Assembly: GCA_944989445.1 (NCBI GenBank)
Contig: CALYLW010000042.1
Span: forward strand, 2,163,242-2,227,241
Reading direction: 5' to 3'
DNA length: 64,000 nucleotides
Origin: Ampullaceana balthica
Taxonomy: Eukaryota > Mollusca > Gastropoda > Lymnaeidae
Shown here: positions 22,001-63,993 of the stretch, in pieces
How the letters are laid out: each line of letters opens with the position of its first letter
Numbering within the stretch: position 1 is the first letter of the stretch
Made by a program: the position numbers and the translations under genes
Notes under the pieces: generated by a model
What the model was told of the DNA's origin: nothing
The model's database searches: none
What the model saw: the letters and a program-made list of their open reading frames with translations, nothing else

Positions 22001-25000
22001 TTTTTTTAATCGTTCACTTGCCGAACTCCACTAACAGTGATGACATGTATTTGTATATTATTTATATACCGGAATAGTAAGAAAACGCTTTGATGTCACT
22101 ATCGCTTGCTCATCGGCTCTGTTATACTGCCGTAACACAACAAAAAATTAAGTCCGGGTATAAGCTAATACAGACTATTTGAAGTTAAAAGTTAGCCGTT
22201 CCTGTGTAATCAACACACACTTATACAGTGGTACCTCGAGATACGAGTTTAATTCGTTCCGTAACCTTGCCCGTATGTCAATTTGCTCATATCTCAAAGC
22301 AATTTTCACCATTGAAATTAATTGAAATGCCATTAATCCGTTCCAGCCCAAAAATTTGCTACCCCTAATTGTTTTGTTACGTGTTTTTAATGAGAAAAAT
22401 GTATTTATAAATAACAAATATAATATAAAAACATAATAAAAGAATGTAAAGCAACAAAAAAACTGGTTTTATAAAGTGTACATAAATATTTGTATTTTAA
22501 TCACTTAAATGTAACTTACACACAACTTAAATGCTACTGTATGCTTAATATTAGTATGTAACTGCTTTTCTCTTCACTGGTCTTTGCCTTTTTTGCCGGA
22601 TTTAAAAAAAAACAACTGTCCAAGGAGATTTGTTTCTTCCTCCCCTTCAGAATGCTGTGGAAATGAGTTAGGGAAGTGTCATTAAATAGTTTCGATCCAT
22701 GACCAGTTGAAACTTTTTCGGGGTGTTTCTTTTCACCGAACTGTGAAACTCTGTCCCACATTCCCAAGATCTCTTTTATCTCACTTGTAGAGATAACCTC
22801 CTCCACCTCTGGCTCTTCCTCAAAATGAATTTCTATCAGAACCCCCGAATGCTGCTGTGAATGTAACTCTTGTAATTCATCGATCGTCAGTTCCTGGGAG
22901 TGCTCGTATCTCAAATTTTGCTCGTATTTCAAAACAAAACTTCGCACGCTCGACAGCTCGTATCTCAAATAACTCGTATGTCAGGGCACTCGTATCTCAA
23001 GGTACCACTGTAATTCAAATTAAGTTCTACGATTTGTTTCTTAATTTACGTTTGTCTTATTTAAACCAGTAGCCTTACATATAAATTATATTAAGAGTCA
23101 TCATTTAAGAATGACGTCTTAACAAATACTCAAATCTACAAAAAAAATATCGCCAATATCGGCAAAAATGCATATCGGTAGACTCCTGGTTTGTATATGG
23201 TTGGTGATGTAACTGTCACCACCGCCCTCAGGTGTCACATGCCGAATGACCCATCTTACAGCCGCTGAAACAAATTACAAAAGTGCACGTTCCATTCGCT
23301 TGTGTTTATTGTGTTCGTTAACATGTCCAGGCCTAGCAGAAAAATTGAGTTTAATAAGATGTACAAAGTTGACAGTATTAAAAATTAAAAAATTAAATAG
23401 TTACTACCACCGCCTAGCAAACAATGACAATCAAGCTGCTAGGCCCTTATGACCTGACAGAACGTTACGTCATTGTTGTTGACATTTTGTTTGAATATTC
23501 GGTTTTAGGTTATGAGTATGACGAATGCATTTACAGAAGGAATAAAAGTTTCTGGTGCATTAAATTTCATTGAAGTGTGTTACTTGAAGCATGTCATTGA
23601 CTATAGTGTGAAATGAGGTGCATGGATGGTGGCTAGGTTGCATTGCAGTCATGATGGCGAAAATTATGCAGCGTTTTAAGCGGGTACCAGCTCTAAAATT
23701 TGGACGGGTACCCAGGCAGCTTTTTTTCAACAATATTGACAGTCCTATCAGGGACTTCAAATAAACTCTCCAAAGCATTAGTTGAAACAGCAACAATTAA
23801 CGCATTTGTATCTAATGCCTTCTGTTCTCCAGCTTCCAGTTACTAATACCCCTGAGGAGCAGCCTTTGCAAAATAAACTTCTCAGAGATGTATTTCCAAA
23901 CTGTACATTTATAATGTTCAAAGCATTGATTGTGGACCCTTAATATATATAGAAGAAGTTCTTTTTTTTTCAAGCAGAACGCACCTGAACGGCGTTCCGG
24001 CACCTTTTGTTCCACATACTTTTTTATATTACTGCCTGGCATGTTTGGTCTTACTGCTTTTTCAGGTTGTGTAAAATATGTGTTCCGGTACCTTTTTGTT
24101 AAAGAAAATAAGCACTGTATAGATATATTACAAGAACAAGCCCCCTATTCTTATTGAACACAGCATTTCAGCCATACAACATACCAAGAAAAAATTGCTT
24201 TTTGAAAATCCATAATATAGTTTTATTGTTATTTAATTATGAATTTTTTCAGTAAGAACAACTGATAGGAATGATGGAACTGTGGAGGTTATTATATTTG
24301 TTGAAGGACTAGAGCCTTCGAGAGATAGATACAAACCTAAACATGGGAAATTGTCACTTGACTGGTTCAATGAGTAAGTCATGGTAACACAAGTGCTTGA
24401 CAGTCTTTGGTATTAATCAATCTATTTGGCTACTAGGACTTTATCAGAAGAAGAATAAATATAGTTGTGGTTTCACTTTAAGATATTCAAAACTCTTTAT
24501 TTTCCTTAAATAAATTAAAATCTATCAAAACTAATCACTACTATTATTAGTTAAAACTATATTCCATATAATTGCAATGTACTTTAGATATTAATTAAAA
24601 AATCTATTTGTACTTGTACATTTAATGTTCCTTAAAAAAACTCGTATTATTCTTCTATTATCCCATCAGTGATTATGGTTTTGCGGTGGAAATAGAAATA
24701 ACAGACAGAAAGGCTAAGACCATCACCACGTGGGCACGTCAAATTGAAAGGATGCCTACAAAAATAAATAGAAAGGATTCAAAATGGAATGTAAGTACAT
24801 GTAATATAATTACTTTAATTTAAGTTAAAAAAAATATTTCATTACATTAAACATTTAATCCTTCATTAATTTCAGAGTTTTATTAATTTTTCTGCTGGTT
24901 ATCTATGTATGTCACCAAAAATAGAGCAACCACTCAATTTAGAACATTTGTTTATAAGACAAATGAAAATTAATAACCCGGCTTCTGAAACTCTTTCATC

Positions 25001-38888: not shown

Positions 38889-38940
38889 AGAATACTACCG
38901 GACGTCTGTTGCCGTATCTACTATCACTAATTATTCAACA

Positions 38941-39454
38941 CTAGACACCCGCGGCGTAGCATACGCCGCAGACTTGATCATGGAGAGAGCAAAGAAAGTG
39001 GAGAAAGAACGGACACAAACTAAAGCACGAAGAAATCAAAACAACGCGAGTGAACGTCATTTAGGGGGGGGGGACTGCCAACTCATTGTTGGCTTCGAGA
39101 CATTTGCAGGCGAAATTCGGTACACACCTAACTTCTATGAAGTCAGCTATAAAACGATAATCGGTTTAAAATCGGATTTACATAGGCCCTATCGGTTTTC
39201 CAAAGAAAAAAAAAGCGCAATTAACAACCCTAAATATGACTCGCTAGGGTCGGCCAATCACAGTTTATGCTTAAGGGATGGTAGTATTAAATGGGAGGCG
39301 GGTAACAACAACCTCAGTGAGCATGTCTTCACGTTTACTGGCTATTTTTTATTTACTTGGTGCTGCTTCTTGTGTCTGTACTCTCACCCCCCCCCCACCG
39401 TTCTTTGCACTGTCTATGATGAGCAAGTCTGTGGCGTATGCTATGCAATAAAGG
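38941..39454 (-). mobile_element. Non-autonomous Helitron, family 4
   Basis: Read on the minus strand it ends GCGGCGTATGCTACGCCGC, then GGGTGT and CTAG at 38944-38941. The other end carries the inverted TGGCGTATGCTATGC. It matches the copy at 57799-58199 in the opposite orientation. The 200-residue plus-strand frame (38857-39459) crosses its boundary and is not a gene. Confidence 0.6.
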
Positions 39455-39748
39455 GGTAAAAGAACGGGCACAAACAGACATTTAAAAAAAAATGTATTCG
39501 CTGGGGCTTGAACCCAAGACCTTCCTCGCATGAGGTGGACGTGATAACCAGTACACTACGAATCTCACATTTTCTGAGAAGGAACAATGCAAGTGAAACG
39601 CAAGGACCATTGTTGGTCACCCCTCCACTACCTTCGCTTGTCAACCGTTAGCCGTTAATTATGTGTAGTTGACCCCAGCGAGGGTCATTCGTCATTATTT
39701 TTTGCACATGCTTGCATCGTGGTGGTGTCTCGCATGGTCACGTGAAGA
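39455..39748 (-). mobile_element. Helitron family 3 copy with tRNA-like segment
   Basis: The minus-strand 5' end is TCTTCACGTGACCATGCGAG at 39748, preceded by A. The body includes AATGACCCTCGCTGGGGTC and the tRNA-like block at 39495-39565. The 3' end is replaced by the abutting family 4 copy. An AT dinucleotide run (about 39754-39773) adjoins. Confidence 0.55.
39495..39565 (-). other. tRNA-like sequence in Helitron
   Basis: ATTCGTAGTGTACTGG (A-box region) and GGGTTCAAGCCCC (T arm) with matching ATTCG/CGAAT acceptor ends. By position the anticodon loop reads CTCATGC. It folds better than the copy at 12913 but has anticodon-stem mismatches. Confidence 0.5.
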
Positions 39749-40086
39749 TAATTATATATATATATATATATATAATTTAATATATATAACATAGTAAATA
39801 GTATATAGTGATATTATATAGATATATCTTAGACAGATTAACTTTTACCAGCAGGATATTCTGTGATTGTTTTATACAGTATACCATTGTCTTTTATTGG
39901 TTTTGAAGCTAATATCCACGGTAAAATCCAAGACTTGATTCTATCTAACATTAAAATATTCCCCATGTTAACTTTTAAACATAAATACGAATAATCACGG
40001 GTTGGATAATACTAATACTAATGTGTAACTACAGTGTAACTGTGTAGCCTCAGCCTCAGGTGCACTGTTGCCAGTGACAATTTTGG

Positions 40087-45917: not shown

Positions 45918-47802
45918 ATAAATGGATAGACATTAGGATAGACGTCCGGAAGTATTCTGTAGTTTATTTTATTATTTTTTAGTCTACTTCCTGTTTCACA
46001 GCTGCAGTTCTCAATTATTAAAAAATGTACCTCTAGTCTACATTTTTACTTAATAGGCTTGATCATTTCTGTGACCCCAACGCGTCATAGGCCATTCGGT
46101 CATATCTATTTTTAGGCTATTCGTTGTCAGTAAGGTCAAACTTTCTCAAACATGGCTAGCAACAGTGTGTTTAATAGTGTTATAGTGCTATCTGAAAACG
46201 ATGTTCCAGGTGCTATTTTGGAAAAAAAATATATTTCTTCTCACTCAGTTTTGCAGCCGAAAAAAGTTATTAAAATGTCAAAGACTTAAAACTTTAATAA
46301 ATAAGCCGTAACATAGTATTTTAAATTATTTAAAGATGAGTGTAAGCGTTCATATTCGTAACTACGGTAAACACTAGTCCTAGCGTAGTCAATTATTAAC
46401 ATATATGTATTTTAATATTGTTTTCCTTGGCCCTTGCCTTATAAAAATATATGCCTTTAGTAATAAACTTACACTAAGATTATGACTTTAATTATAATTA
46501 CATCATATTATGAAAGAATAAACTTCATGGACGAACGAGCAACTAGAACTAGTTACTACTAACTTATTACTAGAGCCTCACGCCTCAAGTCAGAGCAGAT
46601 GCAGAGTCACTAATTCATTTACACAATTCATGCTCGCAAGGACGTTCCATTTCGCATAATATAATATTACATAATATAACCATCTATTGATATTTTAATT
46701 TAAATAAATAAGCCTAGGCCTAAGCATTTATTTAAGATGAGTGAAAGTGTAAGCGGTCGTTCCGGCCGTCGCCACTAGTACTAGTCACTAGTGCTAACAA
46801 ACTTATATTTAATATAAATTGTTTTCGTTGGTTCATATAAATTATATATGCCTTAGTATTTATTAGTAATAAACTTACACTAAGACTAAGATTATGATTT
46901 TAATTATAATTTCATCATACGTTTTAGAAGTAAATAGTATTTGAATGTATAAAATTCTCGGACGAATGAGCGAATGAACTAAAAATAAAAAAGTATAGTC
47001 TGTATATTTACTACATATTAATATTAAATTCACTCTCGCAAGGAAGCTCTATTCACTATCTACTTGTGACTTTTATTGATGATCATTCTAAAAATTAAAC
47101 AAAATAGCCTATTTTATTTAATAAAAAATAACAACAAAAATATTTTAAAACACATTAAACAAACAACATCGAGGTTAGAAGATACACACAATTTTATTTT
47201 GTCTGAAACGTTAATTTTAGACTCAGTCACAAGCAATGTCAATGAGTAATATATAATATACACTTAAATTGTGAAAAATTACAGATTAATTATTTTTAAT
47301 AATAATAATAATAATAAACATATTTTTTTCCACAACTTATAGTAAACAAACCAAATAAGCTTTGGAAATAAATCAAACAGAAAATAATGTAATTTTTGTC
47401 TATCAAGAATTTTAGAAATATACATCCAGATATTCGCCTGGAATAACAAAATGTACCGTGTGCAGACTTGTTGTCATTGGCAACCATTCATCCTCATTTT
47501 GACACTACTACTATTGCCTTGTTCTCATTGTTTCATTCATAAAAAGTGCAGTGTTCAAAAGCCATTTAACCATTGTTTACAATTAATTAAATTATGAGTC
47601 AAAGTTGTAGGTCCACAAGGAATTCCTAATTTTATTTGTACATGTTTATAGTATAGAGGACAGTTAGTTTTGTGATGAGTCATTTTTAAATAATTGAGAT
47701 CTGCAACTGTCAAACAGGAAGTAGACTAAAAATAATAAATAAACTTCATAATGCTTCCGAAATACTTCCGGACGTCTGTCCTAATGTCTACCCATAAATG
47801 CA
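45918..47802. mobile_element. 1.9-kb element with about 130-bp terminal inverted repeats
   Basis: The left arm (TAGACATTAGGATAGACGTC, CGGAAGTATTCTGTAGTTTA, CTACTTCCTGTTTCACAG) is repeated inverted at 47680-47802. The segment 47446-47660 recurs as a direct copy at 50500-50745. No transposase was recognised. Confidence 0.55.
46152..46209 (+). CDS. Candidate orphan first exon (CS-domain gene family?)
   Basis: ATG with 19 codons plus one base (MASNSVFNSVIVLSENDVP) before a GTGCTA donor, the same phase 1 as the first exons of genes A and C. No downstream family exon was found before gene C, and the donor is weak, so it may be a dead duplicate or chance. Confidence 0.2.
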
Positions 47803-47884
47803 TTATTCACTATTATGATACTATAAATTACTATATAACTATATAGGCCTACTATATTATACTATATATATAATTATAATATTT

Positions 47885-48204
47885 ATATATTATAATTCTC
47901 TTCGTGGGACCATGCGAGACACCACGCAAGTATGTGCAACCGGGAACCGAGCATGACGAATGACCCTCACTGGGGTCGACCACTGTATCGAGACCAACAA
48001 TGATCCTTGTGTTTCACTTGCATTGTTCCTTCACAGAATAACGTGAGATTCGTGGTGTAATGAATGGTAATCATGTCCGCCTTATATGGGATAGGTCCTG
48101 GGTTCAAGCCCCAGCGAAAATATTGTTTTTTTTATATTTTTTAAAATGTCCGTGCCCGTTCTTTTACCCCTTTATTGCCAACATTAGCTGACCCGCGGCG
48201 TAGC
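47885..48204 (+). mobile_element. Helitron family 3 copy with tRNA-like segment
   Basis: Starts near TCTTCGTGGGACCATGCGAG and contains GAATGACCCTCACTGGGGTC and the tRNA-like block 48045-48122 (GATTCGTGGTGTAATG... GGGTTCAAGCCCC). It ends towards ACCCGCGGCGTAGC near 48190-48204. A further copy of that hairpin sequence at 48322-48335 was the target of the LTR element. Confidence 0.5.
48045..48122 (+). other. tRNA-like sequence in Helitron
   Basis: The A-box region GTGGTGTAATGAATGG has a small insertion. The T arm CTGGGTTCAAGCCCCAG is perfect. The anticodon arm is not recognisable as a working one. Confidence 0.45.
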
Positions 48205-48335
48205 ATATTCCTATATAATGATTTAGTGAGGGGTGAAGACTTACTGAAAGACACAGTTGTCAAAGTGGGGTGGGATTGGGCAAACGACTGTGAGTGAATG
48301 AAAAGAAGGAACTCTGGAGAAACCCGCGGCGTAGC

Positions 48336-48612
48336 TGTAAATGGTTTACTTTTATATGTGTTTTGTAGGCGTTTTCACAATACAAACTTTCGTGCAATAA
48401 ATCCTTGAAATACTATTGTCAAGAAAATAACTTTAATATGCACATTATATACAAAAGTATAACTTTGAGGTTTCACAACGTGGAGACATCAGCCACACAT
48501 CCGCCATTACTTTTTCAACTCGAATAATACTCTCGAACCTTCTTTCCCCTTTCTTTCCGCGCTTTCACTCACGTGACCTCTCCGTCATCCAACTCGTGAT
48601 TCACACGTGACA
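48336..48612 (-). repeat. 3' LTR
   Basis: Matches 57521-57798 with about ten substitutions and small indels. It begins directly after the GTAGC target copy. Confidence 0.9.
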
Positions 48613-48628
48613 TTCACCCCCATCCTTC
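48613..48628 (-). promoter_or_regulatory. Polypurine tract of the LTR element
   Basis: The minus strand reads GAAGGATGGGGGTGAA immediately before the 3' LTR, a purine-rich plus-strand primer site. Confidence 0.7.
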
Positions 48629-49188
48629 AAAAAAATTGTTTATGAAATAAAACATTTTTTGGTCTTAATACAATAAAATTAATCTACATGTATATTCAAT
48701 TTTCAAATATTCATCATCATTGGACATTCATTACTTTACACACAATATCTAGACATGAAAATCAAGAGAAAAAAATCTATAGGACTTCAACAGTCTACCT
48801 GTACTGAAAAAATGAAACTGAAATTTAAACACATCTGTAATTTTGTCTAATTAAAATACTTTTAACAATCAATATTCATAAAATTAAGTATATTATCCAA
48901 TGGAATTCACACATTGCTTCTTTTCCTTTGTTCTGCAAATAATAATACTAATAATAAAACAATCTTAAGTGTTATTGTTTATGAATTTACAGAATGTCTG
49001 TATTTATTGTCATTCTACTTAATATGTCTGCAACCACATTGTCTTTTCCTTTTAACAGGTTTAATGACAAATTTGTAGTCGGCTAATAGCATAGCCCAAC
49101 GATTTACTTTTGCGTTGCTAATTTTCTTCTTGTTGAATGCCACAAGTGGTTTGTGGTCTGTTAGAAGAGTGAATGTTCTACCTAGAAG

Positions 49189-49917
49189 TTATTTTTGAAG
49201 TTTTTGTAGAGCCCACACTATGGGTAAATATTCTCTCTCTATGGTGCTGTAGTTACCTTCTGTTCTTGTCAAATTTCTGCTCAGATATTGTATAGGATGG
49301 AGGATACCATCATGTTCTTGCATGAGGCACGCTCCTAATGCAATGGACGATGCATCAGTAGAAACAATGAATGGTTTGCCCCATTGAGGTGTAACCAAGA
49401 TGGGTTTCTTCCTAAATGCTTCCTGAATGTTCTCCAATGTGTTGAGGCAATCTCCTGAAAACTGAAATTTTCGAATATCTGTGTTTTTAAAAATTTCTGT
49501 TAGTGGGTGAACAATTTCTGCATAATTTGCAATGAAAGGTCTGTAAAAGTTACATAGTCCCAGCAGGGCGTGCACTTGTTTCTTAGATTTTGGGACTGAC
49601 CGGTAAAAGATCTTGTTTTCATTCTCTGCAGTAGGAGTGTCTGCACTATCTACTATTCTGTATCCCAGAAAATCAATATACATGTATTTCTTTCCAATGT
49701 TGATCTTTTCTGGTGAGATTGTCACATTACATGTATGTTTCTTGAGTCTATCCAGTACAGCTTCAAGTGTATGGATATGTGTTTCCCAATCTTTAGTGTG
49801 GATACATATGTCTACATAATGTACCACATTTGGAATGCCTTGTAACATCACTTTCATAAATCTGCTAAAAGTGGCTGTACTGTTGACTAATCCAAATGGC
49901 ATCACTAACCATTCATA
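49189..49917 (-). pseudogene. Reverse transcriptase C-terminal part and RNase H
   Basis: Resumes at YEWLVMPFGLVNSTATFSRF (RT block 4), then VVHYVDICI, where the YVDD box has lost its second aspartate. LLGLCNFYRPFI (thumb) follows, then RNase H with VSTDASSIALGACL and YSTIEREYLPIVWAL. The RNase H tail continues below 49189 past a stop. No integrase follows in the 580 bp before the 3' LTR. Confidence 0.85.
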
Positions 49918-50124
49918 TACAGTAGAGCCCACTTAACTCGAGCCCGGTTAACTCGTCAGCTCTATTAAGTCGACATTTTTTATTGGAACCGCCAAATTCT
50001 CTCTTTGTCTTTGCATTTTCTCATCGGTTAATTCGATTATTGTAAGTCGCCGAACCCTAATACCTCGAGCACAAAAGAGGGCCAAATTTGCCACTTAGCC
50101 TTGGTTATCTCGATCCCCATTACC

Positions 50125-50420
50125 AATCGCCAGCTTTTGAAAATGTTAGATGTGATTTTTTATAACCAAGGGTGCTAGGTCTGCTGGTGACGTCACAGCC
50201 CGCTTGTGTTCAGCTCTCAGCGCTGTGTTGCTTCTGGTACTATGCCAATCGCCAGCTTTTGAAAATGTTAGTTATCGATTTTTTATAACCAAGGCCACGC
50301 ATCGAATTTCGGTCTCGCTGGGTCTGCTGGTGACGTCACAGCCCACTTGCGTTAAGCTCTCAGCGCTGTGTTACTAACTTAAATCGCCAGCTTTTGAAAA
50401 TGTTACTTATCGGCCGGGTA
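50125..50420 (+). repeat. Tandem repeat, about 130-bp units with TGACGTCA
   Basis: ATCGCCAGCTTTTGAAAATG recurs three times (near 50127, 50248 and 50384). GGTCTGCTGGTGACGTCACA and TCAGCTCTCAGCGCTGTGTT-like blocks separate the units. Confidence 0.75.
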
Positions 50421-50864
50421 AGTGATGCCGATGCCGTGTATTACGTAATTGCCTTAATAGCAAAGATGCTAGCAGAATTGCATGTCTAAAACATTTCGTT
50501 TCATATGGAATAACAAAATGTACCGTGTGAAGAATTGTTGTCATTGGCAACCATTCATCCTTCAACCTCATTTTGACTCTATTACTACTGCTTTGTTCTC
50601 ATTGTTTCATTCATAAGAAGTGGCTGTGTGCAAAAGCCATTTAACTATTGGTTATAATTAATTAAAGTGTCAAAGTTTAAGGTTCAAAAGGAGTTCCTAA
50701 TTTATTTTAGTACCTTTTTATAGAGAAGAGTTCGCTTTTTGTCATGAGTCATATATAGGTCATGATAGTTTGATAGACAAACAAATAATGGCAACGCCTT
50801 TGTGTAAAAAAAACCTCCAAAAACATGTGCATGTACATTCTCAATTATTAACGCTAGTGATAGG

Positions 50865-52756
50865 TAGGGCTGTCAATTTTGTTGAAAAAAGCTGCCCGGG
50901 TACCCGTGAAAATTTCGAACGGGTACCCGGGTTACCCGTTCTAAACTTAAACGTCGCATAATTTTCCCCGTCATGATCGCTATACAATGCAACCTAGCCA
51001 CCATCCATGCACCTCATTTCACACAGTAGTAGTAGCCAACGGCTTGCTTCCAGTAACATACTATTACTAATGCACTACAATTAACTATAATGCACTAAAA
51101 ACTTTTATTCAATTCCTGCTGTAAATGCATTCGTCATACTCATAAATGACAGTAAACTGAACATGCAAACAAAATGTCAACGGCAATGACGTAACGTTCA
51201 GTGTCATACCTTGAATGCTAATATCCACTTGGCGTCGGTAATCGATGATGCTAAGGGCGACGACGTATGCTATACTGCGATAAATCTGAAGTGATCGTGC
51301 TTTGGTCAGTGGTACTGCTTTTGTTGACACCAAAATATTTCTGATATTGGGTGGATCGGCGTTTTTTTTAAAATCAATATCAATTTTATGAATAACATTC
51401 ACATGGCGTTTTATCGCGTTGGGTTGCCACCCTTCACAGACACAATTTAATTACAATGGTTGCATTTTGCCGTGCCGCTGTCAACTTGATTGGCCGGATT
51501 CCACACGACGTCTAACCCATCTTGTTAACTTTGGGTGTATTATTAATATCAATTTTTGGGCTAGGCAAACACGTGTCAATGAACACAAGACACACAAGCG
51601 AATGCAAGGGTGTGGGTTATAGCAGTGCTTCTCAAAGTGGGGGTCCGCGGAAGTTATCAAGAAAGGAGAGAAAATATAATTATAATCCTCCAATTGCTAC
51701 CAATAATACTAACCCTATAGACTTTGTCATTTTTGACAATAAGCAAATAAATGAAAGAAATAAAAGGAAATACAATAAAAGGAAATATAATTCATTTCTC
51801 TATCATGTAAGTACAGGGAAAATAGTGCACCGGTTCCAGATGCAATGGAAAAAATTCCTGCCGGTCCGCAATACAAAAAATTTTGAGAAGCACTGGGTTA
51901 TAGGAGGGAAGCTAGGAGAGGGGGGGGGGAGAGTAGAAAATACGGCATTAGATAGATAGTATCAATCGGTGACCCACTGTCGGCTATTTCAAAGCAAAGT
52001 TAGTTTCAAAGCAAGGGTGTTTGAATGAACAAAAAACAAACACGGCATCTTTCATCTCTGTGCAGTCCATCCTCACAGCCGACGTCTGCCCATCCTACAC
52101 TGTTAGTAACTGTTAGTAACTTTTCAATTTATTAAATTTAAATACTGACGACCTTGTACGCATTATTAGCATCAGTTTTTCTAGGTCACCACGTGTTAAT
52201 GAACACAAGAAGTAAGGCGGATGTAAGGGGTGTGGGTTATAGGAGTGAAGGGAGGAGAGGGGGTAAATAAACAATATTAGCTAGTATCAATCGGCGTATT
52301 TCAAATCAAAGTTAGTCAAAGCAAGAGTAGTTTTTTTTATTAACAAACACGGCGTCTTTCATCTCTAAGCAGTCCGTCCTTGGCAGAGGACTTTTGTTTT
52401 ATTTATACGATTCTTTTAAAGAACCATTTTTTTAGTGTGTTGTGCGATTTCTGTTTCAGGTTGAGAGAAAAAAAGATACATCAAAATACATTGTATTTGT
52501 TGGGACCCTATTTTATTTCCCGTTGACAGATATTTCTCATTAGAAGTACTTCCCAGCATAAACAAAAGTTTTCATTTGATAAATTGTTTCGCAAGCCACA
52601 ATGTAAACACAAAAAGCCGCATGGGAGCCGAAGTTTGTCCTACGGTTAATATAGACATAGAAGCCACATTTTCACGGGTACCCGGGCGGATTTTTACTAC
52701 CCGGGTAATCACACGGCAACGGGTACCCGGGTCCCGGGTACCCGTTGACAGGCCTA
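50865..52756. mobile_element. hAT-type element (GGGTACCCG family) nested in the Tigger-like element
   Basis: Ends TAGGGCTGTCAA...TTGACAGGCCTA with a perfect duplication GTGATAGG (50857-50864, 52757-52764). Subterminal clusters of GGGTACCCGGG palindromes lie at both ends. It is the same family as 20718-23747. No transposase was seen. Confidence 0.85.
51623..51895. mobile_element. hAT MITE, 273 bp, nested in 50865-52756
   Basis: CAGTGCTTCTCAAA...TTTTGAGAAGCACTG with a perfect duplication GGTTATAG (51615-51622, 51896-51903). Confidence 0.9.
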
Positions 52757-53257
52757 GTGATAGGACGATACCAAAATCATAGGGTGCTTACTGTAAACAA
52801 GGCTCCCCAGATTTTAAAATATATAATATAACAGACTACAGACAGTTTACCCACCCTCACTCTCAATCTGCCACACCATATCGCTCAATCTGGGAATCGC
52901 CGCAATACGATGTCGCGCGCGGCGTGGCGGGCAGGAGTAGATGAATTCGTTATACCTGTAGTTATGTACTAGGAAAAAAAAATTGCGCTTACGCAATAAA
53001 GGGTTATATTTAATCTTAAACGGTCCTTAAAAACGAACGGTCTTAACCTTAGGAAGGAATGAAGAAATGGGTCCCGATATTCCGATACGATTACGATTAA
53101 TCGTCCCATCACTAATTAACGCACATCATGTATATAAAGAAATTTTAAGCGCATGTTAATATTTTGCCGCCATATTGGTTTTCGTTTAACTCGATGATCG
53201 GTTATCTCGGCGCCATTTTTCATACCCCGAGGCCGTCGACTTAAGCGGGTCCCACTG

Positions 53258-53773
53258 TACTTCATCCATAGCTATAAATGCAGTATATTTGACAGAATCA
53301 GGATCCATATTTATCTGCCAAAAACCTATGTTTAAGTCAAATGTAGTGAATATTCTGGAATTACCAATTCTGTCTATAATGTCTCTTGGGTCTCCAATAG
53401 GTTCATGGTCCAATTTTGTAATATTATTCAATTGTCTGTAATCACAGCATAGTCGAATCTTTCCATTCTTCTTTTTTACTATTACAGTTGGTGAGGTATA
53501 GTTAGCTTCAACTGCTTTTCTTATTTTGTTTTCTTTGAGTAGGTAATCAATTTCTTGTTTACCTGTGTCTCTATATGCCATTGGAATAGGGTATACTTTA
53601 GTCTTGAAAGGTTCATGTTCTAATAGTTGTATCTTGTGAGTCACAGTTTTTATGTTTCCTGTTTCTTTTGTGATGACACCTTTGTATTTTAGAAAAATTT
53701 TCATCACTCTGTATTTCATATTATCTGGTATGTCAGATGATATTCTTTCACTGTCAGGGCTTTTCTTTTTCAT
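53258..53773 (-). pseudogene. Reverse transcriptase, N-terminal part
   Basis: Shows TSPTVIVKKKNGKIRLCCDY (RT block 1-2), LNNITKLDHEPIGDP and FTTFDLNIGFWQI (block 3, catalytic Asp). It is cut after YTAFIAMDE by the Tigger-like insertion; its remaining part is at 49917-49189. Its frame differs from that of integrase. Confidence 0.85.
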
Positions 53774-53789
53774 TGTACTGTCATTTTCA

Positions 53790-54962
53790 TCATTTTCTTT
53801 GCTGATGATATTTTACTGTTTGTTTTTCTTCTTTATTGTCACCATATGCTCTTAGTTTATCAATGTGTAATTTTTTCATATGTCCTTTTATATTGACACT
53901 GTATGTGACATCACTAAGTTTCTCTTCGATGTTGTATGGACCTTCCCATGTGATTTCATTCTTTGCGTTTGGTAACAATACTAAGACTTGTTCTGGCTCA
54001 AATTGTCTGTGTTTATTTTTGATTTCTCTATGTCATGTACTTTGTTTGATTAGTCTTTGTTTTGCTGTTTCAAAGCTGTAGAGTATTTTATCTCTAGTTT
54101 CTGACATCAGCTGATATCTGTCCTGTATGGCATCTTGTTTGCTTAAAAGCCTTTCTTTGAAATTCTTCAAAAGACTTGCAGGACTTTGACCAAACAGCTC
54201 AAAAGGACTAAAACCTGTGCTTTCATGCTTGCTGCTGTTGTATGCAAATAGTACTAAAAGTAAATATTCATGCCATTTGTCTTCATGGTCTATTGTAATC
54301 TTTAGTAGCATATTTTTGATGGTTTTGATTAGTCTTTCAATCACACCATTTGATTGTGGATGGTAAATTGTGCTGTGCACTTGTGTAATATTTAACATTT
54401 TCATAATAGCTTGTGTCATCTGTCCCTTGAATTGGCTGCCATTGTCTGAAAGAAGGGTTTGAGGAAAACCATATCTGCTGAAAACATTGAGTAATTCAGT
54501 GCATATACTTTCTGGATCTATTCTTTTCAGTGGAATAGCTTCACCCCATCTGGTGGCTATGTCCACTATGGTAAGAGCATACATATGTTTTTTCTTTGAC
54601 ATCTTTTTTAATGGTCCTATTAGGTCTATGGCAATTTTCTCGAATAAGATGTTTGCCTTGTCAGATGATTGTATTGGCGCTGTGTGCTTTCCATCTTTGA
54701 GATTATGTCGTAGACACACTGTACATCTCTTGATGTATTCTTTTATCTGCCTAGCCATCTTAGGCCAGTAAAAGTTTTCTGCTATTGTAGCAATTGTTTT
54801 CTTGGCGCCCATGTGTCCACCTAAAGGACTGTCATGTGTCATTTTTATAATGGTTTCTTGTAACTTTTTAGGAAGAACCACTCTTTTGCATGTACCTGCT
54901 TGTGCAATGTTTATCAATATGCCTTTAACTAGCTTGTAATTTTTGTGTGTGGCCTGTTTCAT
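53790..54962 (-). pseudogene. Integrase with GPF/Y module, located upstream of RT
   Basis: The HHCC zinc finger is visible as H-x6-H (HDSPLGGH) and CTVC. The DDE core follows: IDLIGP, then LSDNGSQFKG, then HPQSNGVIERLIKT (Asp, Asp, Glu). A TGA interrupts at about 54030-54032. The same frame continues to 53790 with LPNAKNEITWEGPYNIEEKL, the GPF/Y module found only in Ty3/gypsy-class integrases and some retroviruses. It is followed directly by the RT domain, not by the 3' LTR. Confidence 0.9.
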
Positions 54963-55459
54963 TGTCTTTGATGAGTTTCATTTTTATTTCCATTATTGTG
55001 CTATCTTCTTCTTGTAGTTGTTTGAATTCTTGTTTTGACATTAGTTGGCTTCCTATTTCAAGTTTCTCATCAACTTCAATGTCTATGTTCTCTTTTCTTT
55101 TTGTGGTGGCTCTTGTTTGTACAGTAGCACATAATTGATAGCTGTTGGCACACCAAGCTTTGAATATTTCATCAGAATTGTCAACAACACCTTCAATATT
55201 GCCTATGATGAGATCACAAATGGCATCTTTCAAAACTCTCGCTCGAACTTCACCTTGAAATTTGAAACCAGGGTGAGTTGATGGTAAGAGGAGCAGTTGG
55301 ACACTCTCTCTTTGTGCCATCAGCCATTATTAGTGTGTCTTTGTGCCCATCATATTCTTTTTCTTCCACCATCCTACAGTGGACCACAATTGTTGTGCAT
55401 CCTGAATCACGAAGAAACATACATTTTCTATTATTGATGTAAACTGGGTAGATTTTCAA
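54925..55459 (-). pseudogene. Aspartic protease region of the LTR element
   Basis: The first frame (55459-55250) contains FLRDSGCTTIVV, a retropepsin active site with D-S-G. The second (55320-54925) begins near the end of it and contains VLKDAICDLIIGN, the usual second strand pair of the fold, followed by an acidic linker. The two halves are in different frames. Confidence 0.7.
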
Positions 55460-55533
55460 CTTTCTATTACTGTTAATAGTGGCCTCAGTATCACTAGATC
55501 TTGATTCTTCTTGTTTCGTTTTTCCTTTATCAT

Positions 55534-56717
55534 CTACATCTTGGTAGTCATTTCTTCTCCATGGCTGATCACAATCTCTGTATCTGAAGTTATGATTGTA
55601 TCTGCCACTCCATGATCTTCTACCTTTGCTTTCAAAATGACCATGTCTTGATATTTCTTCTGTTTCTTTCTTATAGGGCTGCCATTAGGTGACACCCTAT
55701 TTGGTTGTCCTTTATTGTGGTAACACTGCCTCGCCATATGTCCTGGCTTGTTACAGTACCAGCAAATAGTTTGTCTGTTGCCTTGGTTAGGCAGACTCTG
55801 GTTTCTCATTCCTTGTCTTTTTTCTTGGATTTTATTTTGTACTGCTGCAAAGTTATCTTGTCTTTTATCCATTTCCACATTTGGATGAGAGTCCTTGAAT
55901 GTGCGTAATGCATTTGTTAGCTCTGCTTGAGTACGAACTTTCTTGTCAGTTAATGTGAATAGAGCTGGTGTTGCATTTTCTAGGAACTTATCAATTAACA
56001 CCATGTTTAGTATGGCCTTTGGATTGCTTGTATCTATTGCTGTCAGTTCCAAACATTTTTTTATTTTACCTTGTGCTTCATGTACTATTGTCTGTGGATC
56101 TTTATCCATCTTGATTCTCATTTCATGAAATTCCTTTCTATAATCATTTTCTGACTTCCCGAAATGACATAGAAGTGCCTTTTTGACATTTTTATAGATG
56201 TTTTTGTCTTCTTTGGCTATACTGTTGTAAGCTTCGAATGCTTCTCCAGTTAGTTGAGTTGTGCTGGCCAATCTTCTTCATCATAACCTTTCATGGCCAT
56301 TATGGATTCAAAATAATCCAGATAAACATCCATTTTTTCTTTCTGGCTATCATATTTTCTAACTTTGATAGTGTCCTTCAGTGCTGACTTTCTATTTGTG
56401 TCATTACCAGGATTGTGGCCTCTACTCTCTAAATCAATTTGTAGTTTTAATTTGTCAATTTGAAGTTGTTCAAGTTCTCTTCTTGCAGCTCTTTCTTCTC
56501 TTTCAATTATTTGTTTTTGCCTCTCTTCTTCTTTAGCTATTTTTCGCATCTCTTTTTCTTCAGCTAGTTTTAGCTTCTCTTCTTCTTTGGCTACCTTGAC
56601 TTTCTCTTCAACAAAGTCTTTCAATTCTTTTCCACTTAAGCCAAATTCTTTATCTATGGCAGTGAATTTTTCATAGTAATCCATGTTTATTTTTATGGAA
56701 TTATATGAGGCAAGCAA
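55534..56717 (-). pseudogene. gag of the LTR element (coiled coil, capsid, CCHC zinc knuckle)
   Basis: Two overlapping frames. The first (56717-56250) has a long charged coiled coil (EEKLKLAEEKEMRKIAKEEE). The second (56271-55534) has a capsid-like retrotransposon Gag segment (LTGEAFEAYNSI, DYRKEFHEMRI) and one zinc knuckle CWYCNKPGHMARQC (C-x2-C-x4-H-x4-C). The frame change at about 56260 is probably a disabling indel. This SCAN/ARC-like arrangement is common in invertebrate gypsy-class elements. Confidence 0.8.
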
Positions 56718-57502
56718 TTCAGTAAGGAATGTAAGTATTTATTTATTAAGGTATAAATCCTCCAAATGAGAAAATCTTGAATTCAAAATATGTTAAGTCC
56801 AAACAAGTTACACATCTAAATCATTCAATATAATTTTGACAAAATGAGGCAACAAAGTATCCTCACATGGGATCTTAAGTATACTTTATATATACGCTCC
56901 CTCAGATTGACAAAACACAAAGTTTTGAATAAAATAAGTCACTTAGTCAAATTTTCCAATTTCCGAACTTTAGAGTAGTTTTTAGACACTTAAGTTCACT
57001 CCATTACTCCAAATTGCAATTATCACACTTTCCACACAATAAATGAATACAAATTCCGTTCCATGATTTATAATTCACACTGACACAGTTGTTAATAGTC
57101 CATAGCTTCTCAAGTTCAAGGTTTGTTTATAGTTATTTCTTGGAATCACTTAGTAATAGCGTGTAGTGAGCTTGCTGACGTATATACGTTCACTGTGTGT
57201 CACCGACCGACAGTAGGCCTGTACCGTGTCGACTGTATGTTTAGAACCAACTAGGCTGACCTAGTTTTATACAGTGCATGCATGCAATGTGGGTAGTCAA
57301 GCCGCCATTTTGAAAACTTCTTGTATTAAATATTTCATTGAATTACAAAAGCTTATTTACTGCTGCTTACGAACTTGAATATTCACAAATAACGATGACT
57401 CACAATATTTCTTCCTTTAATGAATACTTCTTTTTTTTAAATACACAATACTAGTCACTTCCACGAACCTTGCTTTTGACTATATGAATAGTACCAACAT
57501 GA

Positions 57503-57519
57503 ATTTTGTTCTGACACCA
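57503..57519 (-). promoter_or_regulatory. Primer binding site of the LTR element (tRNA-Leu-like)
   Basis: Two bases inside the 5' LTR the minus strand reads TGGTGTCAGAACAAAAT. TGGTGTCAG is complementary to the 3' end (CTGACACCA) typical of tRNA-Leu. Confidence 0.6.
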
Positions 57520-57520
57520 A

Positions 57521-57798
57521 TGTAAATGGTTTACTTTTATATGTGTTTTGTAGGCGTTCTCACATACAAACTTTCGTGCAATAAATCCTTGAAATACTAT
57601 TGTCAAGAAAATAACTTTAATATGCACATTATATATACAAAAGTATAACTTTGAGGTTTCACAACGCGGAGACATCAGCCACACATCCGCCATTACTTTT
57701 TCAACTCAAATAATACTCTCAAACCTTCTTTCTCCTTTCTTCCCGCGCTTTCACTCACGTGACCTCTCCGTCATCCAACTCGTGATTCAGACGTGACA
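57521..57798 (-). repeat. 5' LTR
   Basis: TGTAAATGGTTTACTTTTAT...CGTGATTCAGACGTGACA as written on the plus strand. It is the upstream LTR because the genes read leftward. Confidence 0.9.
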
Positions 57799-58199
57799 GT
57801 AGCATACGTCGCAGACTTGCTCATCATAGACAGTGCAAAGAACGGTTTAGGGGGGGGGGTGAGAGTACAGATACAAAAAGCAGCACTAAGTAAATAAAAA
57901 ATAGGGAGTAAACGTGAAGACATGCACACTGAGGTTGTTGTTACCTGCCTCCCATTTATTACTACCATCCCTTAAACATAAACTGTGATTGGCCGACCCT
58001 AGCGAGGGTAAGTCATATTTAGTTTAGGGTTGTTAATTGCGTGTTGTTGTGGAAAACCGATTATCGATTATGTAACTCATGACGTTCACCCGAGTTGTTT
58101 TGATTTCTTCGTGCTTTAGTTTGTGTCCGTTCTTTCTCCACTTTCTTTGCACTCTCCATGAGCAAGTCTGCGGCGTATGCTATGCCGCGGGGAGTCTAG
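57799..58199 (+). mobile_element. Helitron family 4 copy, split by the LTR element
   Basis: GTAGCATACGTCGCAGACTT at its start continues the hairpin arm CCCGCGGCGTAGC left at 48322-48335. The 3' end is TGCGGCGTATGCTATGCCGC, then GGGGAGT and CTAG (58196-58199), followed by T. The body matches 38941-39454 inverted. Confidence 0.65.
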
Positions 58200-58200
58200 T

Positions 58201-58766
58201 ATGTTGTATTTCAGCTATTACAGCGCTAATTTGTGAGTCTTTTTCATTTCTAAGGCATTTTTTTGGCTCTCAAAAGTAAATAGTCTGATAGTGATGCAAC
58301 TATTTTGTTTATTATCACAGTACTTGCCGGATTATCCCAATCAGATGCCAAATAGAAATTTCTCACTAACAAACAAACAAAATAAGAATCAAACATCTAG
58401 TAACGAAATAAAAAGTGAAATTGTCTTTAAATATTTATTATCTTCTAAGAACATTAAAATAGATTAAAAATACTTTTTTAAAAATAACTTCAGTCCGTAA
58501 ATTTATTTTAGCGTGGGTCGAGCCAGGTAAAAAAAACATCTGGCACGCAGTTCGCTAGATAAACAAAATGGACGTATCGTGACCAGATTATGTATTATAT
58601 AGAGCCGAATAAAGGCCTTAGAAATTAAAAAGACTCATAAATTTAGCATTGTAATAGCAGAAATACAACGTATAATAATGCATTTAATAAATTAAAAACA
58701 TAAGTTCTCACGAGAAAATTAAATTATGCTGTGAAATAATATACGTGTAAAATCTGCAGGATTACC
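58201..58766. mobile_element. Second copy of the foldback element (left arm missing)
   Basis: Matches 3555-4085, with the right arm ending CTGCAGGATTACC. The left part was cut at the Helitron insertion. Confidence 0.6.
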
Positions 58767-59157: not shown

Positions 59158-62100
59158 ATGGCTGATACTGATGAGTTTACGGAAGTTTTACATCCCAGTG
59201 GTAGGTATTAACTTTTAAAAATATATTTCATAATGATAATGAATCTATTTTTTAATTTTATCTAATTCAATTTCATATTAATCATAACTCTCTCATAGTC
59301 ATATTATTTATTATTCCATTTTTTGGAATTTGGACCTCTAGACTTAAGTCATTTCTTTTAAAAAAAGGCCTTATGTTAAAATAATATATTATTATTTTTC
59401 ATATTCATATGGCGTATGGTTTTGGGCTTGGCTCATATTTGTCTTAGCCCATTGTAATAATCATCTTACTTAACTTATTAAGAATATTAGCCAGATTAAT
59501 ATGTTAACTTTTACTTTTATACTTAAGATTTATTGCATCAATTTATAAATTTCCTAAAACTAAATTCTAAAACAAATAAAAATATCGTGCACGAAATACA
59601 CTCGTGATATGATAAAATGATCTCATATAAAATTATAGTGTATATAATATATATAGTATATATTGAAATTAGATCTACATGTAGTTTATTTATACTTTTA
59701 CACCATTGTTAATTTTTGGTGACCTGTTACTACTGTTACTTAGAGAATTATTTATTTTTAAATTTGATACTTAACATAAAGTTAAAGCAAAATAATTATA
59801 ATTATTTTATTTATCTAAAGCTAAGGCTAAATGAGTTAATGTTATTGTGTCTATTTTTTTTTACCCCCTCCACATGAATATACATTTTTATCACATATTA
59901 ATACTTCAACTTCATCACACACATGTCTTTTCTAGTGCTTGCTTATTTTAGCATTTATTTAAAGATAATGCTCTAAGTCTAAGCTTATTTGCAAAATATA
60001 ATAATAGTGTGGAGAAACACATATAGGTGATTGTTGTTGAGCCTTCTCGTCCATGAGGGGCATCCACCGATCATCGTCGGCGTCTGCGATTCCTCCAAGG
60101 GCATAGGCCACCTACGAGAGACCTCCAGGCTTCTCTATCCTGGGCCAGCTTCTCCAGGATCTTCCATTCATGGCCAATTCTCTTGATGTCTGCCTCCAAT
60201 TCTCGGCGCCAAGTGTTTCTTGGACGGCCTCTTTTCCGCTTACCCTGTGGGTTCCATTTCAGGGCTTGCTTTGTTGTGTTAGGAGCAGGTTTTCTTAGTG
60301 TATGACCAATCCACCTCCACCGCTTCTGGAGAATCTCTTCCTCAATGGGCTTCTGTTTTGTCCGCTGCCACAGTTCCTGGTTGCTGATTTTGTCTGGCCA
60401 GTGAATTCTGAGAATCCTTCTTAAACAGTTGTTGATGAAGGACTGGATTCTGGTCAAGTTTACGGCCGTTGTTCTCCATGTCTCGGCTCCATATAGCAGC
60501 ACAGGTTTTACCATAGCGTTAAAAATCCTTACTTTTAACTTGCTGCCTAAGTTGTTAGAGACCCAAACATTGTTGAGTTGCTGGAAGGCTGCTCTTGCTT
60601 TTCCGATCCTTATTTTGACGTCCGCATCTGTACCACCTTGCTTATCTACCACGCTGCCAAGGTAAACAAAACTGTCCACCTCCTCAAGGGCTTCTCCTTC
60701 AAGCATAATGGGTGATGTACTGGTGGCATTAACCTTGAGGATTTTACTCTTCCCTTTGTGAATGTTGAGACCCATGCTAGCAGAAGTGGCTGCGACAATG
60801 TTTGTTTTCTCCTGCATCTGTTGTTGGGTATGTGCAAGAAGGGCAAGATCATCAGCAAAGTCAAGATCATCCAGTTGATCCCACAAGGTCCATTGGATGC
60901 CATTCCTTTTCTGCTGTGTAGATGTTTTCATCACCCAGTCAATGGCTAACAGGAAGAGGAATGGTGACAGCAAGCAACCTTGTCTCACACCAGTCTTCAC
61001 CTGGAACGCATCTGTCACCTGCTGGCCATGGATAACTCGGCAGTTTATCCCTTCGTACATGTTTCTGATTATATCCGTAATCTTCTGTGGCACCCCGTAA
61101 TGCCTTAGCAATCTCCACAGGGTTTGCCTGTCAACACTGTCGAAGGCTTTTTCATAGTCAACAAAGTTGACATAGAGCGGTGAGTTCCACTCTAGTGACT
61201 GCTCTAGAATGATCTGGTCCGTGCAGGATCTGTTGGTGCGAAAGCCAGCTTGTTCGTCCCGCAACAGAGGGTCTACAGCGTTTTTCACCCTGTTAAGTAG
61301 TACACGGTTGAAAACCTTTCCTGGGATGGACAGCAGGGTGATCCCTCTGTAGTTCGAGCAGGAGCTTAAGTCTCCCTTCTTTGGGATCTTGATAAGGTAT
61401 CCCTCTTTCCAATCGGAAGGAACTTGCTCCTCTTCCCATATCTTCATAAACAGAGGGTGCAGCATTTCCACACTGGTTTCCAAGTCCGCCTTCATTGCCT
61501 CTGCTGGGATGCCATCGGGTCCCGTAGCCTTTCCATCTCTGAGTTGTTTAATGGCCCTGCTAATCTCTTCTTTGGTGGGACTATTACAGTCAATTAGCAG
61601 GTCATTATCGGCTGGTGGATTCCTTGGTTCAGGCCTGTTTAGGAGCTCTTCAAAGTGCTCCTTCCATCTCCCTCTCTGTTGCTCCTCACTTGGTATGGTG
61701 TTTCCCATTTTGTCCTTTACTGGTCTCTCTACCTTGCTAAATTTCTCTGACAGCGTCTTAATGGTATCAAACAGTTCCCTCATGTTCCCCTGGTGAGCTG
61801 CATCCTCTGCTTCTTTAGCAAGTTTATCAACAAATTCCTTCTTGTCCCTCTTGATGCTTTTCTTAACTTCCTTATTTGCATCTGCATACTCCTTCTGGGC
61901 CTTGTTTTTCTGTGCTCGGGTGAGGCTGTTATTCACTTCTGCTTTCTTTCTTTTCCTTTCTTCTATTTTACTCAGCGTACCTGCTGTCATCCATTCTTTG
62001 TGTGCCTGTTTCCTAGCACTTCTTGGCATGTTGACTGTACTGTTTCTTTCATGCTTTGCCACTTCCCTTCGGTGGTTTCATCTTCCAGTATTTCTTGTAG

Positions 62101-63993
62101 GACTTGGAACTTATTGAATAGTGAGATTTTGAATTCTTCCTTTTTGGTTTGGTCCTTCAGGAGGGAGGTATTATACCGAGTCCTGTATGCTGTTTGCTCG
62201 GTATAATGTCTCTTTAGTTTTAATTTCATCCTGGCCACAAGAAGATGGTGATCTGAGGCAATATCAGCTCCCCTCTTAACACGTACGTCTTGGAGAGATC
62301 GCCTGAATTTTTTAGAATTACATACATGGTCTATTTGGTTCATCGTTCTCATGTCCGGTGAGACCCATGTAGCTTTGTGTAATCCTCTTGTGCTGGAAAA
62401 TACTCCCCCCTATGACCAGGTCTGCTGCGGCACTTAGGTCCGCAAACCTCTCACCATTGTCGTTCATCTCGCCTATCCCTTGCTGTCCCATAACCTCTTC
62501 GTACCCTGTGTTGCTATTGCCGATCTTGGCATTAAAGTCTCCCATGAGGATGACGATGTTCCTCCGTGGGCGACCCTGGACTATGGTCATTACTCTATTG
62601 TAGAATTCTTCTTTGTCTCCTTCATCACTTTCATTAGTTGGTGCGTAGCATTGTATAACATCTAGGTTGATGCTACGTTTCTTTGTTCGAAAGGTTGCTA
62701 AAAGAATTCTAGGTCCATGGGCCTCCCATCCAATGAGTGCTCCTTGTGCTGCCCTTGATAGCATCATAGCAACACCCAGGGTATGTGGGGCATCGTCTTC
62801 TTCGTGTCCCGAAAATAACACCATCTCTCCTGAGATTAATCTCTTCTGTCCCCATCCAGTCCATCTTGCTTCACTAATTCCGAGAATGGTGAGCTTATAG
62901 TTCCTCATCTCAGCGGCTATTTGTGCAGCTTTACCAGCCTCGTACATGGTGCGGACATTCCAAGCTCCAATGAAGGTGGTAGTCCTGGTAGAAATGATGG
63001 TTGTCGGCCTAATAGCTTCCAGGTTTTGGCTTTCACTATTAGGCGTCATATTTTCCTCCTCAAGGAATCCATCCTCTCCCAGGACTGAAATGTCTTTTGT
63101 TACTCTTTTCGGTGTTTTTGTAACTATGATTTTTTACATGGCAGGGTTGTTGGCCTTGCGCACAACCACTTGGGGGGTTGCCCCTCACAGCTCAATGGGT
63201 AGCTGCCTTTGTTCGGGTGGGCCCTAGCCTTTGTGGATCCCTCCACTTCCTACAAGGCAGTAGGGCTGATTTTGGTCCACCCCGGGTATTTTATTTCCCC
63301 GGTACCCTCCATATCTGGTGGGCTTTCCCCTATCCGCCGGCTGGGGAGGCGCTCGATAGAAGATCAGCATCTCCCACGAGTATAGGTGATTGACCAATGT
63401 TATTGACCCAGGGTACAGGCAGTGCTGGATTTACCTATTTGCTAAACAAGCTATAGCTTAGGGCCCCCGCCTTCTTGGGGACACCCCAGAATTTTTTTTA
63501 CATATTTGGCACTGGCGTAGAACTTCTGGACTTCAAAAGGGCCCCATATCTCAAATAGCTTAGGGCCCCATCAAGTCTAAATCCGGCCCTTAGTACAGGT
63601 CTAAGGTGGTGAGAAGCAAGGATTGTATTTTAATGAGCCAAATAACTTTGGGGGAAAGTTGGGAATTTCGCATTTTCTAAGAAACTTTAATAAAATACCA
63701 GTGGAATAATCCAACGTGTCGCATGAATTTACATGAGGCAGGAAATTCACAATGAAATACGATCCCTGCTTCTCCCCGCCTTAGACCTGTACCCTGGGTC
63801 AATCACCATTACCCGTTTCTCCACACTAAAATATGTTATTAATAAATAACTGAAAATTTGAATCTTTTTCAGTCTGTTCATATGAAGATAATGATGGAAA
63901 TGTAATAGTTGAAGTATATATTCCACAACTAGAGCCTTCTAAAGATAAATTAAAGCCAAAAAATGGTGAAGTGATGTTGGACTGGCTTAATGA
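59158..63993 (+). CDS. CS-domain protein, gene C (first two exons, runs off the right edge)
   Basis: Exon 1 59158-59200 (ATG, 14 codons + 1, donor GTAGGT) and exon 2 63873-63993 (donor GTAAGT). Exon 2 is 121 nt, exactly the length of gene A exon 2, with the same phases 1 and 2. Start MADTDEFTEVLHPS, then DGNVIVEVYIPQLEPSKDKL and GEVMLDWLNE, aligned position by position with gene A's DGTVEVIIFVEGLEPSRDRY and GKLSLDWFN. The rest of the CS domain lies beyond 64000. The 4.7-kb intron holds a MITE split by an RTE-like LINE. It is more conservative in its sheet residues than gene A and so may be the parental copy; that is inference. Confidence 0.6.
60071..62062 (-). pseudogene. LINE reverse transcriptase ORF (663 codons open)
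   Basis: A linker helix region precedes the RT core: GPDGIPAEAMK, SNYRGITLLSIPGKVFNRVL, DEQAGFRTNRSCTDQI, NFVDYEKAFDSVDR (catalytic D), TGVRQGCLLSPFLFLLAIDW and LDFADDLALL (FADD, a tolerated form of YADD). The thumb and C-terminal region ([33 protein letters not shown]) ends in an arginine run. The RT frame is uninterrupted, so the element is young; only the endonuclease junctions are broken. Confidence 0.9.
61987..63049 (-). pseudogene. LINE endonuclease region, frameshifted
   Basis: Apurinic-endonuclease motifs in order: FIGAWNVRTM, ILGISEARWTGWG (catalytic E), VIQCYAPTN and ILMGDFNAKIG (D-x-N). After a frameshift near 62360-62390 come QIDHVC and ASDHHLLVA (catalytic D-H). A second frameshift near 62000-62060 separates it from the RT frame. 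Such ORFs are often mis-annotated as craniofacial development protein 2. Confidence 0.85.
63420..63591. mobile_element. hAT MITE, 172 bp
   Basis: CAGTGCTGGATTTA...TAAATCCGGCCCTT with duplications GGTACAGG (63412-63419) and AGTACAGG (63592-63599), seven of eight. Internal GCTTAGGGCCCC repeats. It is nested in the MITE at 60007-63826. Confidence 0.7.

What the first reader, a model, noticed from the sequence alone, without database searches (positions are those of the whole stretch)
48336..57798. Ty3/gypsy-class LTR retrotransposon with integrase upstream of reverse transcriptase
Seen: between matched LTRs with a 5-bp duplication, the minus-strand order is gag, protease, integrase plus GPF/Y module, RT, RNase H, 3' LTR. 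Known: Ty3/gypsy elements normally place integrase last; the Gmr1 group is the described exception, first reported from deuterostomes. If this is a protostome genome, it extends the group or marks a separate origin of the same order. The internal rearrangement alternative is disfavoured because LTRs, primer site, gag, INT, RT and PPT are all collinear.
Basis: partly seen in the sequence, partly recalled or inferred. Interest (0 to 1): 0.75.

Follow-up and report, generated by a model that had tools for sequence, protein, structure and literature searches.

The report
Decayed retrotransposon with integrase-first gene order
This is a dead copy-and-paste mobile element whose integrase gene sits before, rather than after, its reverse transcriptase, an unusual but already described order that marks one branch of a large family of animal mobile elements.

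Summary
Window 48336-57798 (minus strand) is one LTR retrotransposon: LTRs of 278 and 277 bp, 96.4% identical, GCTAC duplication, and sister host repeats in the window with the empty site. The order gag, protease, integrase with GPY module, RT, RNase H is real.

The order is not a local rearrangement. Single-ORF relatives are collinear with it from gag to RNase H (P0121, P0123); near relative P0241 (RT 82%) has the GPY module directly before RT. Of 308 collected relatives, 97 are INT-before-RT and 61 RT-before-INT. Separate INT and RT trees nest the window with the same seven full-length relatives (100/99 in each): no chimera. On a joint tree of relatives, window left out, the order changes once (SH-aLRT 100).

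It works like, and probably belongs to, the published Gmr1-like group, already reported from crustaceans (PMC3587641) and an annelid (PMC8220671). The type element Gmr1 was not available for comparison and the host genome did not complete. New member of a known kind.

The parts
57521..57798 (-). 5' LTR (278 bp), TGTCACG...TTTACA
48336..48612 (-). 3' LTR (277 bp), 96.4% identical to the 5' LTR
57799..57803 (.). target-site duplication GCTAC, upstream copy
48331..48335 (.). target-site duplication GCTAC, downstream copy
57508..57519 (-). probable primer binding site TGGTGTCAGAAC one base after the LTR; resembles the complement of a tRNA-Leu 3' end (recalled, not tested)
   Evidence: read by eye
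56250..56717 (-). gag, N-terminal part (coiled coil, capsid start)
   Evidence: 57.6 bits to the INT-first gag profile; P0123 residues 1-157
55534..56271 (-). gag, capsid C-terminal (SCAN-like) part and zinc knuckle, in another frame
   Evidence: (95.7 bits)
55253..55684 (-). open stretch with protease, LRDSGC motif at about 55408; the protease tail continues in another frame to about 55150
54033..54962 (-). integrase: H2C2 zinc domain, rve core with DD35E
53814..54107 (-). integrase C-terminal part with GPY (GPF/Y) module, behind one in-frame stop
   Evidence: P0241 residues 1-102, 83%
53252..53812 (-). reverse transcriptase, N-terminal half
   Evidence: P0241 residues 103-291, 82%
49920..53257 (.). 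3,338-bp insertion inside RT: TA on both sides, imperfect terminal inverted repeats of about 30 bp beginning CAGT, no long open frame; not part of the retrotransposon
49051..49920 (-). reverse transcriptase C-terminal half (damaged YVDD) and RNase H with one in-frame stop
48613..48628 (-). polypurine-tract-like GAAGGATGGGGGTGAA next to the 3' LTR
   Evidence: read by eye

Best explanation
A single, old, inactivated copy of a Ty3/gypsy LTR retrotransposon of the integrase-first (Gmr1-like) lineage. Shown by sequence: LTRs, target duplication, and the order gag-PR-INT-RT-RH. Inferred from the established LTR-retrotransposon cycle: the live ancestor was transcribed from LTR to LTR, made a Gag-Pol in which protease released integrase ahead of RT/RNase H, copied its RNA in gag particles from a tRNA primer at the PBS and a polypurine tract, and the integrase inserted the DNA with a 5-bp stagger. 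The order is inherited from a common ancestor of a whole lineage. Afterwards this copy gathered frame changes and stops and received a TA-targeting insertion in RT.
For: LTRs, TSD, domains. Two sister repeats in the window align across the insertion point (38996-38943 and 12984-13091). P0121 residues 167-1499 and P0123 residues 1-1651 map in order to the window from gag to RNase H. Near relative P0241 has the GPY module directly N-terminal to RT in one frame. Top 68 of 120 listed full-length INT hits and top 45 of 71 RT hits include no RT-before-INT protein. INT and RT trees give the same nested sets around the window: seven relatives at 100/99 in both, ten at 100/97 and 98/81. Order changes once on the joint tree. 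Gag matches the INT-first SCAN-bearing gag profile at 95.7 and 57.6 bits against 7.1 for the best of 500 shuffles and 36.1 for the best of 32 conventional gags.
Against: In the careful RT tree the INT-first rows are not one side of a branch (2 changes; 1 change in 58% of 200 bootstrap trees), though one clade is not rejected (p-AU 0.457). With 15 named rows added, the quick INT tree puts three conventional rows inside the 79-row set that holds the INT-first rows. Pfam SCAN itself does not match the window gag even at E 10. No second copy from the same genome was seen; no sequence labelled Gmr1 was available.
Confidence: 0.93

Rival explanations
1. The integrase-first order arose independently in this branch and is only convergent with Gmr1 of deuterostomes.
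For: No deuterostome protein of proven INT-first order was in the collection, so the type branch is unplaced; RT alone does not show one clade.
Against: On the joint tree of relatives, 61 INT-first rows including molluscs and a tick are one side of a branch (SH-aLRT 100); INT alone 98/92. SCAN, which published reviews tie to Gmr1-like gag (PMC4592553, PMC3424704, passages), is precomputed in 29 of 97 INT-first and 0 of 61 conventional proteins.
Confidence: 0.1
2. A chimera: RT of one element and integrase of another joined by recombination or nested insertion at this locus.
For: RT is physically split by an insertion and the copy is damaged.
Against: Same neighbours in INT and RT trees; INT-GPY-RT continuous in P0241 and gag to RNase H continuous in P0121 and P0123.
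Confidence: 0.02
3. A Ty1/copia element with the order usual for that superfamily.
For: Copia elements carry integrase before RT.
Against: Pfam gives RVT_1, RT_RNaseH_2 and Integrase_H2C2; the best solved matches include the Ty3 polyprotein (7q5b) for both INT and RT; GPY module present.
Confidence: 0.01

Closest known systems
Gmr1-like Ty3/gypsy elements (Goodwin and Poulter 2002, title and later citations seen, paper itself not held)
   Same: Integrase upstream of RT (as described in PMC3587641, PMC8220671, PMC6238403, passages); full gypsy domain set; SCAN-related gag in close relatives.
   Different: No labelled Gmr1 sequence could be compared; this copy is dead and split by an insertion; its nearest named full-length relative is from a snail.
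P0121/P0242-type elements (P0242: Physella acuta, 1,510 aa, uncharacterised protein)
   Same: Collinear gag-PR-INT-RT-RH; both sit closest to the window's family in INT and RT trees.
   Different: RT 49-52% and INT 49% (P0121) identical: a different family of the same subclade.
P0001, P0002, P0241 (unnamed contigs)
   Same: INT 81% and 94%, RT 82% identical: the same or a sister family.
   Different: Fragments of unnamed origin; they may or may not come from the host species.
Conventional Ty3/gypsy (Ty3 7q5b, 412-type, Mag and others)
   Same: Same enzymes and GPY module.
   Different: Integrase behind RNase H; separated from INT-first rows on the joint tree.

Membership tests
Ty3/gypsy LTR retrotransposon | LTRs with TG/CA-type ends, short target duplication, PBS and PPT | tested here: met
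   (PBS and PPT by eye; tRNA identity not tested)
Ty3/gypsy LTR retrotransposon | RVT_1-type RT, gypsy RNase H, H2C2 + rve integrase, GPY/F module | tested here: met
Gmr1-like lineage | Integrase upstream of RT | tested here: met
   in near relatives
Gmr1-like lineage | INT and RT both inside the integrase-first lineage | tested here: met
   reservation on RT alone:
Gmr1-like lineage | SCAN-related capsid in gag | tested here: inconclusive
   Pfam SCAN absent in the window gag and below cut-off in P0121 (22.5 of 27 bits); profile of SCAN-bearing INT-first gags matches
Gmr1-like lineage | Groups with the type element Gmr1 of cod | not testable with these tools
   no sequence labelled Gmr1 was returned
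Ty1/copia | Copia-type RT and integrase | tested here: not met
   gypsy-type RT, RNase H and H2C2 integrase

The most novel reading that the evidence does not exclude
The integrase-first order is not an oddity of deuterostomes but the ancestral, once-evolved mark of a large animal-wide lineage reaching sponges, ticks and many molluscs, in which the window's subclade (window, P0121, P0242, P0123, P0244, P0246, P0249, P0252) is an undescribed branch; surveys based on RT/RNase H alone have left such elements under other clade names.
Probability: 0.5. Interest if true: 0.45.

Novelty: new member of a known kind. Interest (0 to 1): 0.3.

Why it matters
The single element is ordinary once its relatives are seen. 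The useful point is that domain order behaves as a once-changed character across 107 gypsy relatives, with INT-first members named from snails and periwinkles (Physella, Biomphalaria, Littorina, Nucella), a tick (Rhipicephalus) and probably a sponge (Ephydatia, P0180: SCAN, protease, integrase with no RT between). That makes the age of the order testable, and warns that classifying by domain order alone can misfile gypsy elements as Copia.

Tried and rejected
The window itself holds no second copy by tblastn with three pieces. Viral-contig scans found no relatives. The genome-contig scan gave 18 loci; I examined two of them, L001 and L002, eukaryote-like contigs in bacterial MAGs, and both are RT-before-INT. 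Rfam: nothing at gathering score in the window. Solved-structure search with the gag gave only zinc-knuckle matches and chance. Protease motif count: R before D[ST]G in 50 of 61 INT-first proteins with enough upstream sequence; in conventional ones only 13 of 48 had a motif in the stretch searched, none with R, so this is a weak control. Gag profile test: P0128 was among eight relatives given but starts too late to have gag, seven matched. Named INT-only rows of Pleurodeles sit on a long branch near INT-first rows (support 82) with no RT seen: not used. Rows dropped before trees: 158 proteins had both domains, 135 had long enough hits, 107 remained after removing near-copies at 70% identity. 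Homolog lists were capped at 120 shown: 205 found, 124, 71 of 71. Papers: passages only for PMC8220671, PMC3587641, PMC8556966, PMC6238403, PMC2774666, PMC7998251, PMC11117352, PMC4131045, PMC4592553, PMC3424704, PMC12440569, PMC2678813, PMC12314368, PMC2577118; others in search listings only.

Full report
Observation. The LTR pair 57521-57798 / 48336-48612 is 96.4% identical (seven mismatches and two short indels by eye on the alignment) and is flanked by GCTAC on both sides. With the two host flanks joined, sister copies of the same host repeat elsewhere in the window align across the junction at 38996-38943 (57 columns, 86%) and 12984-13091 (116 columns, 83%); a third copy at 39191-39446 aligns up to the junction and then skips about 150 bases of the downstream flank. 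So the 9.46-kb block entered a repeat as one unit.

Anatomy. Going with the minus strand: LTR, PBS-like TGGTGTCAGAAC, gag (two overlapping frames), protease with LRDSGC, integrase with H2C2 domain and DD35E core, GPY module, RT, RNase H, PPT-like tract, LTR. A 3,338-bp insertion at 49920-53257 splits RT; it has TA on both sides and imperfect inverted ends starting CAGT, as in pogo-like DNA transposons (the name is recalled), and no long frame. The element is dead: frame changes between gag, protease, integrase and RT, stops behind the integrase core and in RNase H, and a damaged YVDD motif where P0241, P0121 and P0242 read YVDD.

Relatives. Three protein searches gave 308 distinct proteins. 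Profiles built from the INT and RT hits located the domains: 97 INT before RT, 61 RT before INT, 143 INT only, 7 RT only. In one search the first 68 of 120 listed hits contain no RT-before-INT protein; from rank 69 both orders mix, with five INT-first proteins among mostly conventional ones. In one search the first 45 of 71 contain none, and every later hit with both domains is conventional. P0121 maps to the window in order from residue 167 (gag) to 1499 (RNase H), and P0123 from residue 1 to 1651. P0241, 82% identical in RT, begins with the integrase tail and GPY module and runs straight into RT.

Trees. The careful INT tree (111 rows) puts the INT-first rows plus window rows on one side of a branch (98/92). 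The careful RT tree (109 rows) does not: it needs two changes, with one change in 58% of 200 bootstrap trees, and holding them together costs 1.6 log units, p-AU 0.457; the quick RT tree had them together at 82. The joint tree of 107 relatives, without the window, needs one change, support 100 (quick, SH-aLRT only). Around the window both trees give the same sets: P0121, P0242, P0123, P0244, P0246, P0249, P0252 at 100/99 in each, then also P0128, P0139, P0253 (INT 100/97, RT 98/81). With 15 named extra rows the quick INT tree placed three conventional rows inside the 79-row set holding the INT-first rows, so the outer edge of the lineage is not firm.

Gag. A profile of 35 SCAN-annotated gags matches the window's two gag pieces at 95.7 and 57.6 bits; the best of 500 shuffles of the larger piece reached 7.1, the best of 32 conventional gags 36.1. 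The profile includes the zinc knuckle, so part of the score is not capsid. Pfam SCAN itself is not matched by the window. Reviews say that the SCAN domain derives from Gmr1-like gag (PMC4592553, PMC3424704; passages). Of the proteins with both domains, 29 of 97 INT-first and 0 of 61 conventional ones carry the precomputed SCAN label.

Known work. Gmr1-like elements with integrase upstream of RT were described from deuterostomes in 2002 (paper not held; cited in passages). PMC3587641 reports four crustacean Gmr1-like elements as the first in protostomes; there the order itself was not seen on one molecule, since GyRex4 (RT/RH) and GyRex5 (INT) do not overlap. PMC8220671 places annelid family LGF3 in Gmr1 by RH, RT and INT trees. 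The mollusc survey PMC6238403 lists no Gmr1 clade among its mollusc clades (Table 1), although INT-first proteins from Biomphalaria, Physella, Littorina and Nucella are in my collection. Searches for Gmr1 with sponge or cnidaria returned four and five papers; I saw no report of the order in a sponge in the listings, and I did not read those papers whole.

Mechanism. Shown: structure, insertion with 5-bp duplication, order shared by descent. Inferred: polyprotein maturation in which integrase is cut free ahead of RT/RNase H; tRNA priming; particle-based reverse transcription. Nothing suggests a function for the host.

Limits. Host unknown; own genome unreachable; no labelled Gmr1 sequence; most relatives come from unnamed contigs.

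Noticed in passing
window 49920-53257: 3,338-bp TA-flanked insertion with imperfect CAGT-type inverted ends and no transposase-like frame; parts of it recur elsewhere in the window (47439-47683, 23448-23747).
   Followed up: partly
window 38940-39814, 12863-13091, 57799-58300, 47833-48178: A host repeat family into one copy of which the element inserted; other copies show the empty site. A tRNA-Met-like stretch at 39493-39565 lies in it.
   Followed up: partly
window 60071-63049: A LINE with long endonuclease and RT frames (Exo_endo_phos below cut-off, RVT_1, DUF6451); 60034-60824 is 95.8% identical to 1454-2240.
   Followed up: no
window 17446-17865: Weak DUF4371 match below cut-off, perhaps a hAT-related fragment (recalled).
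   Followed up: no
P0180 (Ephydatia muelleri): SCAN, aspartyl protease, then integrase with no RT between, grouping with INT-first rows (97, quick tree): probable integrase-first element in a sponge.
   Followed up: partly
PMC12314368 (passages): Coral elements with integrase before RT are called Copia with the 2002 gypsy paper as reference; their enriched Pfam domains include PF00078 and PF17921, so some may be INT-first gypsy.
   Followed up: no
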